Positions 28,995-34,696 of a stretch of 64,000 nucleotides of DNA are shown here, one piece after another. The notes under the pieces were generated by a model. The model saw only the letters and a list, made by a program, of their open reading frames with translations. It had not been told where the DNA came from and ran no database searches. The position numbers were made by a program, and so were the translations under genes. Positions within the stretch are counted from its first letter, which is position 1. Each line of letters opens with the position of its first letter. The DNA comes from Bacteroidota bacterium. Lineage in GTDB: Bacteria; Bacteroidota; Bacteroidia; Chitinophagales; Saprospiraceae. Location: assembly GCA_029557915.1 (NCBI GenBank), contig JAKQHS010000015.1, positions 1 to 64,000 on the forward strand, written 5' to 3'.

Positions 28995-29081
28995 AGGGTG
29001 TGTGTTTAATTAAAAACTTATATTAAAAAATTAAATATAATAAGTCTCTGACCTAAAAATAAACTGCATTTTGAAACCATG

Positions 29082-29089
29082 TATATTTG
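29082..29089 (+). promoter_or_regulatory. -7 element of asd promoter
   Basis: TATATTTG, an exact consensus match ending 26 bp before the asd ATG at 29116. Confidence 0.5.
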
Positions 29090-29115
29090 CGGGCTTAATT
29101 ATCATTGTACTCCAT

Positions 29116-30135
29116 ATGAAAGTTGCATGCGTTGGCGCTACCGGATTAGTCGGTACCGTCATGTGCCAGGTGCTCGAAGAAAGGGATTTTCCGGTGACCG
29201 AATTTATTCCCGTGGCTTCTGAAAAATCGGCCGGGAACAAATTCCTGTTTAAAGGAAAAGAATATAAGATTCATACCCTGGCCGAGGCGGTGGCAAAAAA
29301 ACCGGACCTGGCCCTCTTTTCAGCCGGTGCATCGGTTTCCCTGGAATGGGCGCCCCGGTTTGCCGAGGTCGGTACGGTGGTGGTGGATAATTCCTCCGCC
29401 TGGAGGATGGACCCTTCAAAAAAACTGGTCGTCCCTGAAGTAAACGGCGAGGTGATCACTGCCGGGGACCGGATCATTGCCAATCCCAACTGTTCAACCA
29501 TTCAAATGGTGGTGGCCCTGGCGCCGCTTCATAAAGCATACGGCATCAAAAGGCTGGTCATTTCGACCTATCAATCGGTGACCGGTACCGGGGTGAAAGC
29601 GGTCAGGCAATACGACCGGGAACATTCGGGCGAGCAGGTGCCCCAGGAGGAAAAGGCTTATAAATACCCGATTTTTGAAAATGTCATCCCCCATTGTGAT
29701 GTGTTCCTGGACAACGGGTATACCAAGGAGGAGATGAAGCTGGTCAATGAAACCAAAAAAATCCTTGGAGATCCCGGGATCCGGGTGACGGCCACTGCGG
29801 TAAGGGTGCCGGTCAAGGGCGGTCACTCTGAAAGCGTTAACGTCGAATTGGAACGGGATTTTGAGATGGACGACATAATAAAGTTACTTTCTCAGGCTGA
29901 AGGGGTGCAAATGATGGATGATCTGGCAACTTTTAAATATCCCATGCCGTTATATGCAAAAGGGAGGAATGAAGTTTTTATTGGCCGTCTTCGCAAGGAC
30001 GAGTCTCAGGAAAGGACTTTAAATATGTGGATTGTTGCCGATAATTTACGCAAAGGAGCTGCGACGAATGCTATTCAGATCGCAGAATATATGTTAAAAA
30101 AAGAACTACTGCCGCTCGAAGCGGAAACAGTATAG
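29116..30135 (+). CDS. asd: Aspartate-semialdehyde dehydrogenase
   Basis: 339 residues from ATG 29116; an upstream start at 29071 overlaps the promoter. NADP loop GATGLVG is at 7-13, catalytic Cys126 in NPNCST, STYQSVTG follows, and active-site His237 is in RVPVKGGHSES. It reduces aspartyl phosphate to aspartate semialdehyde for lysine/diaminopimelate, threonine and methionine synthesis in the cytoplasm. It is followed by a coiled-coil protein gene 52 bp downstream on the same strand. Confidence 0.97.
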   Translation: MKVACVGATGLVGTVMCQVLEERDFPVTEFIPVASEKSAGNKFLFKGKEYKIHTLAEAVAKKPDLALFSAGASVSLEWAPRFAEVGTVVVDNSSAWRMDPSKKLVVPEVNGEVITAGDRIIANPNCSTIQMVVALAPLHKAYGIKRLVISTYQSVTGTGVKAVRQYDREHSGEQVPQEEKAYKYPIFENVIPHCDVFLDNGYTKEEMKLVNETKKILGDPGIRVTATAVRVPVKGGHSESVNVELERDFEMDDIIKLLSQAEGVQMMDDLATFKYPMPLYAKGRNEVFIGRLRKDESQERTLNMWIVADNLRKGAATNAIQIAEYMLKKELLPLEAETV

Positions 30136-30187: not shown

Positions 30188-31552
30188 ATGAAAAGGAGAA
30201 TTGTTTTTTGGGGTACCAATACTGAGAACGAAAAAGTACTGGTTGCTTTACAGCTTGATCCGGAACAAAATATTGTACACGAATGGATTTTTCCCCAGGC
30301 CCATGTGACGGAAGAATTTGCCAATACCATGATGAGGGACTGGAGGATAGGAAAAGAGCTCGATTTCCCGGAATCTGCGGTCCATTCAGAAAAAGCCCTT
30401 ACGGCTTCAGAGTCTCTTTTATCACCCGGTTTAAAGCCGGATAAGGAAGATATCATCCTGAGGGCCCAGACCGAATGGCATTTTATCGTCCTTTCCCATA
30501 AATTAAAGCAGGGCTTTGAGAATGAATACCGGGACCTGAAAGAAAAAACAGATAAACTCCTCAAATACGACAACGAGCTTTGGGAAGAGCTCAAAACCTT
30601 CTGGGACCGGGTTCAAAACCAGGTCAGGGAAAAAAACCTGTTTAAAGAACATGCCCAGATCCTGCGTGACGGCACCAATGCCCTGTTTGAGCAACTGAAG
30701 AAGTTGAGAAAGGCCGTCGATGAGGAATTTGACCGTACCTCCCGGGACCATGTAAATCAATTTCAGAAAAAACTGGATGAAATAAGTCATAAACTTTCCA
30801 ACAACCTCAGCCTGCAGCCTCTTTTTTCTGAACTGAAGGAATTGCAAAACGCCTTGAAGGGGATTGAGATGAACCGCAATGACCGGAGTAACATCTGGGA
30901 CCAGATCGATAAACTGTTCAAACAAATCAAGGACAAAAGATTCGGGCACAAGGATTCGCGTGAAGGTTCCGGGTCTGACCGCCTTTCAAGAAGGTACGAA
31001 GGCCTTATCGAAGCCCTGCAAAAAATGGAATCCTCCATCAAAAGGGATTACAACGACCTGGAATTTGAAAAAAGAAAGGTGGCCAATTCCGAAGGGCAGC
31101 TGGAAGCTCAAATCCGTCAGGCCAAAATCAAAATGATTGAGGAACGCATTCGGTCCAAGGAAGAAAAACTTCACGACATGAGATCTACCCGGGAGGATCT
31201 CGAAAAAAGACAGGAACAGGAAAAACAAAGGGAAATACGCCGCCAGGAAAAATTAAAACTGGAACAGGCGAAACATGCCGTCGAGGATCGCATTAAGGAG
31301 GAGATTAAAAAGGCCGCCGAGGCAAGGAAAGACGATACCCGCCTTGAAAAGGCCGCCGAGGCCATTTCCGGGAGTCCCAAGCCGGTTGAACCGCATGACA
31401 ACATTCTGGACGCCATCGGCACCACGCTTGGAGAGACGCTTGAAGATGTGGTGGATACCGTACGAGCCGTTTCCGAGGTGGTGGGCGATAAGATCCAGGA
31501 GTTTACCGAAAACCTCAAAAGCGACAAGCCCTCAGAGGATAAAAATGCCTGA
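30188..31552 (+). CDS. Long coiled-coil protein of unknown function
   Basis: 454 residues, cytoplasmic (no signal). The N-terminus (about 1-60) has IVFWGTNTENEKVLVALQLDPE with VHEWIFP, a compact domain I do not recognise. From about 90 to 400 it is highly charged and heptad-rich, with long Glu/Lys/Arg helices (EERIRSKEEKLHDMRSTRE, QEKQREIRRQEKLKLEQAK). The tail (about 415-445) has an amphipathic stretch LGETLEDVVDTVRAVSEVVGD. It may be a structural or scaffold protein. The stop codon abuts that of the ATP-grasp-SET gene from the other strand (TGA|TCA at 31550-31555). Confidence 0.7.
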   Translation: MKRRIVFWGTNTENEKVLVALQLDPEQNIVHEWIFPQAHVTEEFANTMMRDWRIGKELDFPESAVHSEKALTASESLLSPGLKPDKEDIILRAQTEWHFIVLSHKLKQGFENEYRDLKEKTDKLLKYDNELWEELKTFWDRVQNQVREKNLFKEHAQILRDGTNALFEQLKKLRKAVDEEFDRTSRDHVNQFQKKLDEISHKLSNNLSLQPLFSELKELQNALKGIEMNRNDRSNIWDQIDKLFKQIKDKRFGHKDSREGSGSDRLSRRYEGLIEALQKMESSIKRDYNDLEFEKRKVANSEGQLEAQIRQAKIKMIEERIRSKEEKLHDMRSTREDLEKRQEQEKQREIRRQEKLKLEQAKHAVEDRIKEEIKKAAEARKDDTRLEKAAEAISGSPKPVEPHDNILDAIGTTLGETLEDVVDTVRAVSEVVGDKIQEFTENLKSDKPSEDKNA

Positions 31553-32980
31553 TCAGTCTCTCAGGGATTCCCTTTTTTCCATCGAATTGCCGGGAGTCCC
31601 CTTGATCCATCCCCTGCATTGATCGGAGCCGCACTGGCAGGCAAAGGGTTCCATGGTTTCATCCAGAAAAGTAGCGTAATCCAGGGTAAGTTCCGTGCCC
31701 ACAGGGATATCTTTAAGGGCGATGACATTGAGCCCGTCGTAGCCGGTATTTGGATCACAACTGTGATTCTGGGGGGCCCAGACGGAGGGGTCGTCATCCC
31801 AGAGAATATAGAGGTGTCCGCTCAGGGGCACGGCGTACCGGGCAAATAAGTCTTTTTCCACAGCCGACCAGTTTTTGTCCACAAATTGTTTGGTGACGAT
31901 CCGGTGGCCGCGGGCTTCGTTGTTGAAAATCACTTCTCCTGCGGCGAGGTGCACGTTGGCATAAATGCCGAATCCATTGATGGAATCGCCTTTCATCGTA
32001 TACTTTTTAAGCTGGGCTTTGTACCTGGAAATCCCTTCCCGGATGATGTGCTGCAAAAAGCCGGCCTGACCGATGCCATCAAAACGAAGGATGTAATCGG
32101 CGGATCCCTCATACCCATCGGAATAAAAAACCGAACAGGTAAAATTGATTTCCAGGAAATAGATCTCCTTTTTATCGTTGACCCTGAAATCAAGCCTGGC
32201 ATACCCCATTCCTCCGAATCCCCTGAATATTCGCTGGGCGGCAAGCCTTAGCCGGTTTTCGAGTTCGGGGTCCTGGCAGGGAACATTGGCCTCCAGGTGC
32301 AGTTCCGATGTTTTGAGGGCATAGGTTTTATAGGCAAAACCACTGGGGAAAACATATTCTACCGGTTTGAAGGTACGGCATTGTTTCTCGTTGGCCGGGT
32401 CCGCGGCTACCAGGACGGTAAATTCCCGCCCGGCGATGTATTCTTCGACGAGCAGGGACGGATATTCCAGCAACAACGCTCGGGCTTTTTCCAGAAGTTG
32501 TGCCGGGTTGGCGACCAGGGAATGGTCATCCACCCCAAGGCTGTCGCCGGCTTTGGCCGGTTTTACAAACAATGGATATTGAAGTTTTTCCACAGCCTTC
32601 GGGATATCCTCCGGGCGCTCGATCAGGGCATATCTTGGAGTGAGGATGTCTTCGGTGTACGCCACGTATTTCATGAGTTCTTTCGAGGGGTCGTACAACC
32701 TGCTCGTGGGCCCGGTAAACGGAAGTTTGAGGGATTCCAGTGCATAAATGACATCGATGGAAGGAATATCCCAGTCCAGGTACCCTTCGCATAAATTGAC
32801 AAAAATATCATAGCCTGCATGCTGAAGCCCGCTCAATTGACCGTAGGTATGCAGTTTGTTCAGAAAGACATGGTCCACGGTATGCCCCGGAAGCAGGCGC
32901 GATAAATCCCGGGGGGGATCATAATACTTATAATCCACGGAAGAAGCCGAATAATCGGGCTGTAAGACACAGACTTTCAT
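31553..32980 (-). CDS. ATP-grasp ligase fused to a SET methyltransferase domain
   Basis: 475 residues. An ATP-grasp domain of the D-Ala-D-Ala-ligase type comes first (about 1-315): LFVKPAKAGDSLGV with ATP-lysine K140, LLVEEYIAGREFTVLV (E179/E180), and YARLDFR...FLEINF (D264, E277, N279 for Mg). A SET domain follows (about 327-440): GFGIYAN, NHSCDPN 405-411, GTELTLDY with Tyr435. The post-SET zinc cysteines are C448, C450 and C455 together with C408. SET domains transfer methyl from SAM to lysine; ATP-grasp joins a carboxylate to an amine. Last gene of a three-gene operon. I recognise both domains but not this fusion; substrate unknown. Confidence 0.88.
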   Translation of the reverse strand: MKVCVLQPDYSASSVDYKYYDPPRDLSRLLPGHTVDHVFLNKLHTYGQLSGLQHAGYDIFVNLCEGYLDWDIPSIDVIYALESLKLPFTGPTSRLYDPSKELMKYVAYTEDILTPRYALIERPEDIPKAVEKLQYPLFVKPAKAGDSLGVDDHSLVANPAQLLEKARALLLEYPSLLVEEYIAGREFTVLVAADPANEKQCRTFKPVEYVFPSGFAYKTYALKTSELHLEANVPCQDPELENRLRLAAQRIFRGFGGMGYARLDFRVNDKKEIYFLEINFTCSVFYSDGYEGSADYILRFDGIGQAGFLQHIIREGISRYKAQLKKYTMKGDSINGFGIYANVHLAAGEVIFNNEARGHRIVTKQFVDKNWSAVEKDLFARYAVPLSGHLYILWDDDPSVWAPQNHSCDPNTGYDGLNVIALKDIPVGTELTLDYATFLDETMEPFACQCGSDQCRGWIKGTPGNSMEKRESLRD

Positions 32981-33019
32981 CTAAAAACGGAACGGAAAAG
33001 GTCAGGGTTCATGGTTTGA

Positions 33020-34168
33020 TCAGCCAACCAGGACATTCGCGCGGACACCGGCTTCCACTTCAAACCGGATCAGGGCGTCCAGGATGATTTCCCGGATAAG
33101 ATAGTCAAAGGATTTTTGGGAATATTTGAGAATGGCGCCGATGGAGGTAAAGTTTTCATCTTCACTCAGGCCGCATTGCGCGTTTACCTCCAGCACGTAC
33201 AATTTGCCGCTCGTCTGGTCCATGCGGATATCAATCCGGCCATATCCCTTGCCCCGGACCGATTGGTAAGCAGACAAGGAGATGGCTTCCAGGGCATCCT
33301 GGATTTCAAAAGGGGGTGATTTATATTCATAAAAATTACCCTGCAAAGGCATGCTGCTTTCGTTTTCGTACACTTCCCACAGGCGTTCGTAAGAAAGGAA
33401 TTTTTCATGATCGGGCAGGGAGGCATGGAAAACCCGTTCAACCGGCGCAAAGTAGATAAGGTCCTCAGGCCGGTCATACGAACCTACTATCAGTGTGGTA
33501 TATTCCGGTCCGGTGATAAACTTTTCCGCAATCACCCCCCCGGCGCCGAATTCCCACCCCCGGTAACCTTCAAACAGTTTGAGGACTTCCGTCTTCATTT
33601 CGGAAGGGGTATTCACCACATTTTTTATTCCTACCCCAAGGGATCCGCCGGAGACCGCCGGTTTGACGATAAGGGGTTTACCCAGTCTTTTGAAAATACC
33701 GGCAGGGCTGGGATTGGACGCCTGGATCGTTTTCCAGGGGGCATTGGAGACCCCATGGGCATCGAAGGCTTCCTTCATCGAAATCTTGGAAGTAGTGATT
33801 TCGTAAAAAAAATGGTCTGCCCCGGTGAAAACCAGGCCGCTGTATTCCAGGGCCTTGACCACGGAAAGACCCGGCGTCCCGTTTATTTCATCGCCGTCGC
33901 AAAGGTTTAATACCACGGGGAAAAATTCCCCTTCGTGCAGTTCCTGCTGCAGGCCTTCGATGACTTCGCGGTAATGGTCCAGCGTCACGGGCTGCCAGGT
34001 CCACGGCATTTTGATTTTTTCAAACACCCGGGTATACTCGGCGACGCTTTGATTAAAATCATAATAATAATCCAACTGTTCATCGTTGGTTTTCAAATAA
34101 GGGAAAAGCACCCAAACCTTGATTTTCCGGTTGCCCGTCAGCTTCTTGAATCTGCGAAAGGATTTCAT
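33020..34168 (-). CDS. ATP-grasp ligase of D-Ala-D-Ala-ligase type
   Basis: 382 residues. N-terminal region WVLFPYLKTNDEQLDYYYDFNQS, then VVLNLCDGDEINGTPGLSVVKALEYSGLVFTGADH (the preATP-grasp NLCDG motif of Ddl-like enzymes). Next are LGKPLIVKPAVSGGSLGVGI (K169), GVIAEKFITGPEYTTLIVG (E215), GYGRIDIRMDQTSGKLYVLEVNAQCGL (D313, E327, N329). A 40-residue insert lies between the last two motifs (YFAPVERVFHASLPDHEKFLSYERL). All catalytic residues are present. It sits 24 bp after the SET gene and 39 bp before the ATP-grasp-SET gene. Not the cell-wall Ddl by context; substrate unknown. Confidence 0.88.
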   Translation of the reverse strand: MKSFRRFKKLTGNRKIKVWVLFPYLKTNDEQLDYYYDFNQSVAEYTRVFEKIKMPWTWQPVTLDHYREVIEGLQQELHEGEFFPVVLNLCDGDEINGTPGLSVVKALEYSGLVFTGADHFFYEITTSKISMKEAFDAHGVSNAPWKTIQASNPSPAGIFKRLGKPLIVKPAVSGGSLGVGIKNVVNTPSEMKTEVLKLFEGYRGWEFGAGGVIAEKFITGPEYTTLIVGSYDRPEDLIYFAPVERVFHASLPDHEKFLSYERLWEVYENESSMPLQGNFYEYKSPPFEIQDALEAISLSAYQSVRGKGYGRIDIRMDQTSGKLYVLEVNAQCGLSEDENFTSIGAILKYSQKSFDYLIREIILDALIRFEVEAGVRANVLVG

Positions 34169-34192
34169 GAAAAGTCTAGTAGCTGGGCCTTT

Positions 34193-34696
34193 TTAGACCA
34201 GGGTGGGCACTTCTTTGAGCTGGCTTTGAATGTAGGAAGACAAATGATAACGCTGGATCAGCTCAGGTTCGATGGCATGGGCCCCTTGAATGTAACCCAG
34301 GCATTTAGGACTGCCGCAGGTACAATCGAAGGGCTGGATCATTTGCCATTCCGTGGAGGGATAAAAGTAAACCATTTGTTCTCCCGCTTTGATGTCCCGG
34401 ACGCTACGCAGAACGCCGTGGTCTACATCAAAAAAAACGTTGGGGTCGCAACCGTGATTGATGGCCGCCAGAAATTCTGGATCGAGCACCATGTGCTGGC
34501 CTTCGCCCACCTGAACCGTCAAATAGGTCGGATTCGCCTGGATTTGTTTGGGTCCGAAGCGGTAAAGAATTTGTCCCGATTTGATGTTTTTGGTTGCCTG
34601 GAATGACCTTTGCTGGGTGTGGTGATCATAATAGATGTTACCCAGACCATGGCGGCTGAGTAACTCGACTTGTGATTTGCCTGTTTTGAGTTTCAT
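34193..34696 (-). CDS. Stand-alone SET-domain methyltransferase
   Basis: 167 residues from the ATG at 34696; 13 extra residues upstream are possible. It is a minimal SET domain: HGLGNIYYD, AINHGCDPNVFFDVDHG (pseudoknot motif, 79-93), AGEQMVYFYPS with the expected tyrosine at 112, and post-SET CTCGSPKC (C125, C127, C132) plus C83. The usual Asp before the catalytic Tyr is Phe (YFY). All zinc ligands are kept. SET proteins normally methylate lysine side chains with SAM. First gene of the operon with two ATP-grasp proteins. Confidence 0.88.
   Translation of the reverse strand: MKLKTGKSQVELLSRHGLGNIYYDHHTQQRSFQATKNIKSGQILYRFGPKQIQANPTYLTVQVGEGQHMVLDPEFLAAINHGCDPNVFFDVDHGVLRSVRDIKAGEQMVYFYPSTEWQMIQPFDCTCGSPKCLGYIQGAHAIEPELIQRYHLSSYIQSQLKEVPTLV

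What the first reader, a model, noticed from the sequence alone, without database searches (positions are those of the whole stretch)
31553..34696. Three-gene cluster pairing two ATP-grasp ligases with two SET methyltransferase domains
Seen: SET gene, then ATP-grasp gene (24 bp gap), then ATP-grasp-SET fusion (39 bp gap), all on the minus strand, with intact ATP-grasp metal/ATP residues and intact post-SET zinc cysteines. Known: DdlB-type ATP-grasp enzymes form peptide-like bonds, and SET domains methylate lysine with SAM. Inference: the operon builds or tags a peptide or protein by ligation and then methylates lysine. I know of no described pathway with this exact gene set, but I cannot search the literature.
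Basis: partly seen in the sequence, partly recalled or inferred. Interest (0 to 1): 0.85.

Follow-up and report, generated by a model that had tools for sequence, protein, structure and literature searches.

The report
Operon pairing peptide-type ligases with methyltransferases
A three-gene bacterial operon, kept together in scores of related genomes and often sitting beside a transport protein, most likely builds and methylates a small peptide-like molecule; the molecule itself is unknown.

Summary
In detail: A (SET, 34193-34696), B (ATP-grasp, 33020-34168) and C (ATP-grasp::SET, 31553-32980), minus strand, gaps 24 and 39 bp, catalytic residues intact. It is a conserved system. A genome scan matched 300 stretches encoding relatives of C; of 70 examined loci with room upstream, 63 also carry A and B. 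One genome fuses A to B, mirroring C, so the operon looks like two SET+ligase modules. Green sulfur bacteria (9 of 86 genomes) keep A and C without B, next to a full ABC transporter (8 of 9) and a third SET (5 of 5 read). In 195 Chitinophagaceae-type genomes a lone ABC membrane gene, usually beside C, occurs in 25; 24 of them have C.

The lysine reading is not supported: A's nearest solved relative, by sequence and fold, is BurB, which S-methylates free methionine, though some BurB SAM contacts are not kept. C's ligase half has the whole D-Ala-D-Ala ligase fold but not its D-Ala motifs. No conserved precursor peptide was found nearby. Best reading: a small peptide-like molecule is ligated, methylated and often exported. 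Substrates are unknown; C's SET could still act on protein. No paper found by these searches describes the operon.

The parts
34193..34696 (-). Gene A: stand-alone SET methyltransferase, 167 aa, BurB-like (TxQ...H stretch, FYPSTEW, post-SET cysteines)
33020..34168 (-). Gene B: D-Ala-D-Ala-ligase-like ATP-grasp ligase, 382 aa
31553..32980 (-). Gene C: ATP-grasp ligase fused to a SET domain, 475 aa; the part by which the loci were found, present also where A or B is missing
32006..32980 (-). Ligase half of C (residues 1-325), whole D-Ala-D-Ala ligase fold
31595..31975 (-). SET and post-SET half of C (residues 336-462)

Best explanation
The operon makes a small, methylated, peptide-like metabolite. 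B and the ligase half of C are D-Ala-D-Ala-ligase-type enzymes (fold shown for C, family match for B) that activate a carboxylate as an acyl phosphate with ATP and join it to an amine (inferred from the family). Their D-Ala-binding motifs are replaced, so other building blocks are used (inferred). A and the SET half of C are SAM-dependent methyltransferases in a part of the SET tree that also holds BurB, which S-methylates free methionine; they probably methylate the amino acid or the product (inferred; methionine is one candidate). SET+ligase is the working module: A+B and C in Bacteroidia, A+C in green sulfur bacteria. The product is exported by an ABC protein in many hosts (inferred from neighbourhood). 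Shown: conserved linkage, a natural fusion, fold, motifs, co-occurrence. Not shown: any substrate, product or activity.
For: Linkage: A and B accompany C in 63 of 70 loci with at least 1850 bp upstream (loci). Fusion: in L079 A and B are one 556-aa frame. Green sulfur bacteria: A directly beside C in 9 of 9 loci, no B in the stretches held; full ABC transporter beside C in 8 of 9, the ninth contig ending inside C; third SET in 5 of 5 loci read with long flanks. Chitinophagaceae-type loci: lone ABC membrane gene (PF13748) within 400 bp of C, same strand, in 47 of 74 with room; 24 of 25 genomes with a close copy have C, against 58 of 195 overall (Fisher 8e-14; genera 17 of 17 against 36 of 101, 1e-9). 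Own genome holds it on another contig at 49% identity. BurB kinship of A: phmmer 1.4e-14 against 2.9e-5 for the next chain; profile 73 against 38 bits; VIA Z 13.6 against 10.7 for the first histone enzyme; Cys-to-Tyr spacing 29 in BurB and in 25 of 25 A rows, 35 in two histone enzymes. C ligase: Ddl fold, Z 27.9 over 293 residues. D-Ala motifs absent. No precursor ORF seen: best small upstream family in 7 of 61 loci.
Against: A-BurB identity is only about 30%, with Foldseek TM about 0.6; BurB's SAM-contact residues H72, R133 and H138 map to Leu, Gln and a variable place in A; the joint placement of A and BurB in the tree is weak (85/83 and 81/69). C's SET is BurB-closest in the PDB only narrowly (42 against 34 bits), its segment before NHSC is long, and no fold search of that half alone was made. 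The lone ABC gene is missing in 26 of 74 loci with room and in 3 of 5 C-bearing genomes of the window's family, is on another contig in the window's genome, and has no ATPase part of its own. A is missing in 7 of 70 loci with room and in G023. I recognised no amino-acid or metabolite gene consistently beside the operon among the gene families listed.
Confidence: 0.55

Rival explanations
1. Protein modification: the ligases attach an amino acid or peptide to a protein side chain or terminus and the SET domains methylate the tag or a lysine.
For: Nearly all SET chains matched in the PDB are named protein lysine methyltransferases. C's SET has a long segment before NHSC. A eukaryotic protein, TTLL12, joins SET-like and TTL (ATP-grasp-like) domains (PMC3520985, passages).
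Against: Nearest solved relative of A acts on free methionine. ABC transporter neighbours in two lineages. No conserved small ORF that could be the target beside the operon.
Confidence: 0.2
2. Cell-envelope building block: B and C make an unusual dipeptide or depsipeptide for peptidoglycan or another wall polymer, as Van ligases do, and the SET enzymes methylate it.
For: Whole Ddl fold for C; Van ligases among NCBIfam hits; the green sulfur ABC protein scores with MsbA-type, peptide and glucan exporters, below their cut-offs.
Against: Own genome has a separate Ddl-type protein with the usual motifs; I recognised no mur or van genes among the recurrent neighbours listed; patchy distribution (58 of 195, 9 of 86).
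Confidence: 0.1
3. Intracellular osmolyte: the operon makes a sulfonium or betaine dipeptide kept as a compatible solute.
For: BurB's product S-methylmethionine leads to the osmolyte DMSP (PMC12542666, PMC7496086).
Against: Transporter association; the aminotransferase and aldehyde dehydrogenase seen beside a BurB-group SET gene in Eleftheria were not recognised beside this operon.
Confidence: 0.1
4. Graspetide-type RiPP cluster: the ATP-grasp enzymes cyclise a ribosomal precursor.
For: ATP-grasp enzymes, Bacteroidota hosts, ABC transporter nearby.
Against: No conserved small ORF upstream (best family 7 of 61 loci); the same-strand families listed downstream lie, by position, in the ABC gene region. 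Best families are Ddl-type, and no graspetide ligase is among the matches listed.
Confidence: 0.04

Closest known systems
BurB, methionine S-methyltransferase of the DMSP/malleicyprol pathway
   Same: Small stand-alone SET protein; A matches it best in the PDB by sequence and fold. Shared residues in BurB numbering: T73, Q75, H81, H93, Y124, S126, E128, F135 and the zinc cysteines; same Cys-to-Tyr spacing, 29.
   Different: About 30% identity; H72 and S88 are Leu in A; R133 and H138 are not kept; BurB sits with PLP enzymes and a megasynthase (PMC7496086), A with ligases; activity untested.
D-Ala-D-Ala ligases (DdlA/DdlB, Van ligases)
   Same: Fold over the whole ligase half of C and catalytic Arg/Asp/Glu/Asn of B and C.
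   Different: N-terminal E-x-x-I/V-S motif and the AKY loop motif absent (roles recalled); below all NCBIfam Ddl cut-offs listed.
TTLL12 (eukaryotic SET-like + TTL protein)
   Same: A SET-like domain and an ATP-grasp-like ligase domain in one chain.
   Different: Order SET then ligase, as in L079, not as in C; lacks critical residues and showed no activity in vitro (PMC3520985, passages); eukaryotic.
ATP-grasp dipeptide and graspetide clusters
   Same: ATP-grasp ligases with transporter genes.
   Different: No precursor ORF found beside this operon; no SET partner in the passages shown of the graspetide survey PMC8939145.

Membership tests
BurB-type methionine S-methyltransferase | SET fold with BurB as best structural match | tested here: met
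   A model pLDDT 84; VIA Z 13.6, 129 aligned, rmsd 3.8; next 10.7; Foldseek TM about 0.6
BurB-type methionine S-methyltransferase | Active-site Tyr124 and adenine-contact His93 | tested here: met
   Map to Y112 and H81 of A, invariant in 25 of 25; both are general SET residues, so weak evidence
BurB-type methionine S-methyltransferase | SAM-contact residues His72, Arg133 and His138 | tested here: not met
   L59, Q121 and a variable position in A; so A is not filed as BurB
BurB-type methionine S-methyltransferase | Methylates free methionine | not testable with these tools
   Needs enzyme assay
SET protein lysine methyltransferase | Catalytic SET motifs (NHSC, Tyr, post-SET Cys) | tested here: met
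   BurB has the Tyr and cysteines too, so not decisive
SET protein lysine methyltransferase | Lysine of a protein as substrate | not testable with these tools
   Needs enzyme assay
D-Ala-D-Ala ligase | Ddl fold and ATP/Mg residues | tested here: met
   Fold for C, residues for B and C; B was not modelled
D-Ala-D-Ala ligase | D-Ala-binding motifs (N-terminal Glu, AKY loop) | tested here: not met
   Absent in the C and B rows aligned with six Ddl-type proteins picked by their motifs; residue roles recalled
D-Ala-D-Ala ligase | NCBIfam cut-off | tested here: not met
   B and C 83.6 bits at most against Ddl cut-offs of 243 or more
Graspetide RiPP cluster | Conserved precursor gene beside the ligase | tested here: not met
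   61 upstream and 76 downstream stretches; precursors elsewhere in the genome not tested
DMSP (bur-type) pathway | Decarboxylase, aminotransferase and dehydrogenase partners nearby | tested here: inconclusive
   None recognised by eye among the recurrent neighbour families printed (79 loci, up to 8 kb a side); the families were not run against Pfam, and partners elsewhere were not sought

The most novel reading that the evidence does not exclude
A new class of natural-product pathway, shared by many Chitinophagaceae, some Saprospiraceae and some green sulfur bacteria, in which SET-domain enzymes methylate an amino acid (perhaps methionine to a sulfonium) and partner ligases of the Ddl fold build it into a peptide that an ABC protein exports.
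Probability: 0.3. Interest if true: 0.9.

Novelty: new variant of a known kind. Interest (0 to 1): 0.72.

Why it matters
SET domains are known mainly as protein lysine methyltransferases; the paper that introduced BurB calls its role remarkable, since natural-product methyltransferases had been found only in classes I and III (PMC7496086, passages). Here two or three SET domains per operon are tied to peptide-type ligases in scores of genomes examined, and 300 stretches matched. By family search such genes look like 'D-alanine ligase' and 'SET', which hides the link. If the reading holds, bacterial SET proteins include a metabolite-making branch, and an unknown compound awaits isolation from cultured strains such as Lacibacter, Ferruginibacter and Terrimonas, which carry the operon (A not found in Ferruginibacter paludis).

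Tried and rejected
Lysine methylation as the default reading was dropped because BurB was the best PDB match of A in each comparison made. RiPP precursor: looked for beside the operon and not found; the widest downstream small-ORF family (48 loci) is a piece of the ABC gene, and the other families printed were placed by position only. Defence system: PADLOC gave no match up to E 0.01 for A, B, C or the lone ABC membrane protein; the ten matches of the green sulfur ABC protein, the best mad3 at 3.1e-32, all fall in its ATPase part. An essential Ddl: rejected, own genome has another protein with the usual motifs. Other recurrent Chitinophagaceae-type neighbours (an 845-aa helicase-like ORF in 42 loci, a single-strand-binding-like ORF in 32, a MnmG-like ORF in 22; names recalled) lie on either side at varying distances, or, for the MnmG-like ORF, on the other strand, in at least eight loci within 15 bp of the end of C; I took them as chromosomal background without testing. 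Plasmid search for C: 62 records, none covering 80% of C; the 30 listed are annotated as Ddl, Van or other ATP-grasp proteins or not at all. Plasmid search for A: 9 records, none covering 80%. Paper searches without a useful result. The VIA list for the fusion model covers residues 1-329 only, so the SET half of C was not tested there.

Rows dropped: L038 (same contig as L006, begins inside B) was left out of the 79-locus counts. Three of the 79 loci (L052, L074, L076) come from one MAG. Trees used every sixth or third locus. Of the SET genes brought, L001 was not in the tree because my filters missed its frame, and only 29 of the matches had been given as new loci. Of the 300 relatives only the best 80 were seen. 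The Cys-to-Tyr spacings printed stop one residue short of the Tyr; one search recounts them.
Full report
WHAT IS THERE. The finding is right in every stated detail. On the minus strand lie A (SET, 34193-34696), B (ATP-grasp, 33020-34168) and C (ATP-grasp then SET, 31553-32980), with gaps of 24 and 39 bp. Pfam gives SET for A, Dala_Dala_lig_C for B, and both for C. The window lies in a 5.0-Mb genome. Its family is Saprospiraceae, inferred because its nearest relative found, G024, matches an uncultured Saprospiraceae contig in length and coordinates. GC of the three genes (50-51%) is close to that of the window (49.8%).

HOW WIDELY IT OCCURS. A scan of named genomes with an alignment of eight C proteins gave 300 stretches that encode relatives; the best 80 were kept, 62-78% identical. 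One is titled only 'uncultured bacterium', the other 79 name Bacteroidota taxa, 47 of the 80 being titled Chitinophagaceae or a genus of that family (my count; genus placement recalled). In 79 of these loci (L038 left out; three come from one MAG), 70 had at least 1850 bp upstream of C and 63 of the 70 have both A and B in the locus; six lack A only, one (L100) lacks A and B. A-B-C on one strand is the rule. Exceptions: A after C in L091; about 1.7 kb of other genes between B and C in L047 and a gene on the other strand there in L115. Sampling whole genomes for C: 5 of 150 in the window's family at E below 1e-180; of these the window, G044 and G144 have A-B-C, G023 lacks A, and the contig of G024 begins inside B. 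4 of 395 in the class at E <= 1e-30, all in two families of one order; 58 of 195 in the second family, taken as Chitinophagaceae because places of G560 and G607 match loci L081 and L084 so titled; 67 of 296 in the phylum by profile at E <= 1e-25, of which 15 match over nearly the full length and the rest only in the ligase half.

A DISTANT VARIANT. Eight of those fifteen lie in one genus (g408); a search of its family gave 9 of 86 genomes, all in that genus. These are green sulfur bacteria: four of four tested carry the FMO protein family and one operon lies beside a magnesium-chelatase gene. The C of one (L201) is 38% identical to the window's. A lies directly beside C in 9 of 9, with no B in the stretches held. 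Next to C come a 585-aa ABC transporter with membrane and ATPase parts and, in 5 of 5 loci with long flanks, a third SET gene. That transporter (86-100% identical) is beside C in 8 of 9; in the ninth the contig ends inside C. Elsewhere in the phylum G895 has A-B and C in separate places and G894 has C without A or B in the 14 kb read. So C stands alone at need, and A and B are further parts.

TWO MODULES. In L079 A and B form one continuous 556-aa frame, the mirror image of C. It is one case among 79 loci, from a MAG. It suggests that each ligase has a SET partner.

THE FOURTH PARTNER. In the 79 loci a lone ABC membrane domain (PF13748) lies within 400 bp downstream of C, same strand, in 47 of 74 with room; L096 has it overlapping C by its open frame; 26 have none in the locus. 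Of 195 genomes, 25 have a close copy (E <= 1e-40) and 24 of these have C, which 58 of 195 have (Fisher 8e-14; by genus 17 of 17 against 36 of 101, 1e-9). These tests do not correct fully for kinship. The exception, G666, shares a genus with a genome that has C. The window's genome has the gene on another contig at 49% identity. In the window's family only the two genomes of its genus have a close copy; the other three C-bearing genomes have no match at E <= 1e-10, and eight genomes without C have only matches of 22-32% identity. How a membrane domain without its own ATPase works is not explained.

THE SET DOMAINS. The best PDB match of A is BurB (1.4e-14; next 2.9e-5); with a 25-row profile BurB scores 73 bits against 38 for the next chain. 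The AlphaFold model of A (pLDDT 84) matches BurB at Z 13.6, 129 residues, rmsd 3.8, 30% identity; the first histone enzyme scores 10.7; Foldseek puts BurB first with TM about 0.6. BurB methylates free methionine to S-methylmethionine and not MTHB or MMPA (PMC12542666, parts 1-2 of 4 read; also PMC7496086, passages). Mapping that paper's residues through the alignment, T73, H93 and Y124 are kept in A (T60, H81, Y112); H72 and S88 are Leu, R133 is Gln and H138 is variable. Methionine is held in BurB by main-chain contacts, so residue identity cannot predict A's substrate. From the NHxC cysteine to the tyrosine there are 29 residues in BurB and in 25 of 25 A rows, 27 in 29 of 32 C rows (three not measured), 35 in MLL1 and a Set2-type chain. 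C's SET is nearest BurB too, but only narrowly (42 against 34 bits), and its segment before NHSC is long, like that of lysine methyltransferases. In a tree of 72 SET rows without eukaryotic enzymes, the sampled operon SETs (15 A, 18 C, 2 third SETs) and the BurB group lie, with four others, on one side of a branch with support 98/96, apart from 30 other SETs of Bacteroidota genomes; the closer A-BurB joining is weak (85/83, 81/69), and the program warns of long branches.

THE LIGASES. C's model (pLDDT 84) matches D-Ala-D-Ala ligases over the whole ligase half, Z 27.9, 293 residues. ATP and metal residues are kept in B and C, but against six Ddl-type proteins from the same family of genomes, one from the window's own, the N-terminal Glu motif and the AKY loop are not (their D-Ala roles are recalled from the Ddl literature). 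NCBIfam scores lie far below the Ddl cut-offs listed. These are amide-forming ligases for other substrates, by inference.

NEIGHBOURS AND ANCESTRY. No conserved precursor ORF was seen beside the operon: upstream the largest small-ORF family covers 7 of 61 loci, and downstream the same-strand families listed lie, by position, in the ABC gene region. Among the recurrent neighbour families printed I recognised no tight metabolic partner besides the ABC gene; they were judged by eye. In a quick tree of C the window and G024 nest within Chitinophagaceae-type rows (SH-aLRT 97, no bootstrap) while the other rows of the window's family branch outside, which suggests transfer.

HOW IT PROBABLY WORKS. 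A ligase activates an acid with ATP and joins it to an amine; its SET partner methylates the building block or product with SAM; a second module extends or decorates it; an ABC protein exports it. The linkage, folds and motifs are shown; every chemical step is inferred. The main rival is protein modification, for which C's SET is the best argument.

WHAT IS KNOWN. Full-text searches for ATP-grasp with SET domain found two papers, on TTLL12 (passages read) and on drug side effects (listing only); other combinations found none or unrelated ones among those listed. The graspetide survey PMC8939145 and the CDC123 paper PMC4431377 were searched by term; no SET partner appeared in the passages shown. 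The library holds only open-licence papers, so absence from print is not proven. TTLL12 is the nearest domain combination found but is eukaryotic and inactive in the assays reported.

Spacings were recounted, H72 was added to the residues not kept, the DMSP partner test was lowered to inconclusive, and wording on counts was narrowed.

Noticed in passing
L121:4757-6669 (Rhizobium bangladeshense plasmid p7): A BurB-group SET gene, annotated hypothetical, lies between an asparagine-synthase-related gene and an S-adenosylmethionine decarboxylase gene: a BurB-like SET beside another possible amide-forming enzyme.
   Followed up: partly
L119:7851-12319 (Eleftheria terrae plasmid): A SET protein 72% identical to the BurB stretch sits with a polyketide synthase, a TauD-type dioxygenase, an aminotransferase and an aldehyde dehydrogenase: a bur-like cluster.
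   Followed up: partly
L047:5458-7034: Two genes that look like a DNA methyltransferase and its restriction partner (motif recalled) lie between B and C.
   Followed up: no
L100:7318-7914: Where A and B are missing, a gene resembling a class I methyltransferase (motif recalled) precedes C and the ABC gene is kept.
   Followed up: no
L141:7037-8976 (G145): Two adjacent ATP-grasp ligases distantly like C, with an acetyltransferase-like gene (name recalled) and no A-type SET found: perhaps a related paired-ligase pathway.
   Followed up: partly
window 31550-31555: The stop codon of C abuts that of the convergent ORF 30188-31552, coiled-coil-like by its composition, with no spacer between them.
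   Followed up: no
window 29071-30135: An ORF that reads like aspartate-semialdehyde dehydrogenase (name recalled), an amino-acid pathway gene, lies about 1.4 kb from C on the plus strand.
   Followed up: no
G815:C9:61185-62236: The FMO protein gene appears in two overlapping frames in this green sulfur genome, perhaps a sequencing error.
   Followed up: no
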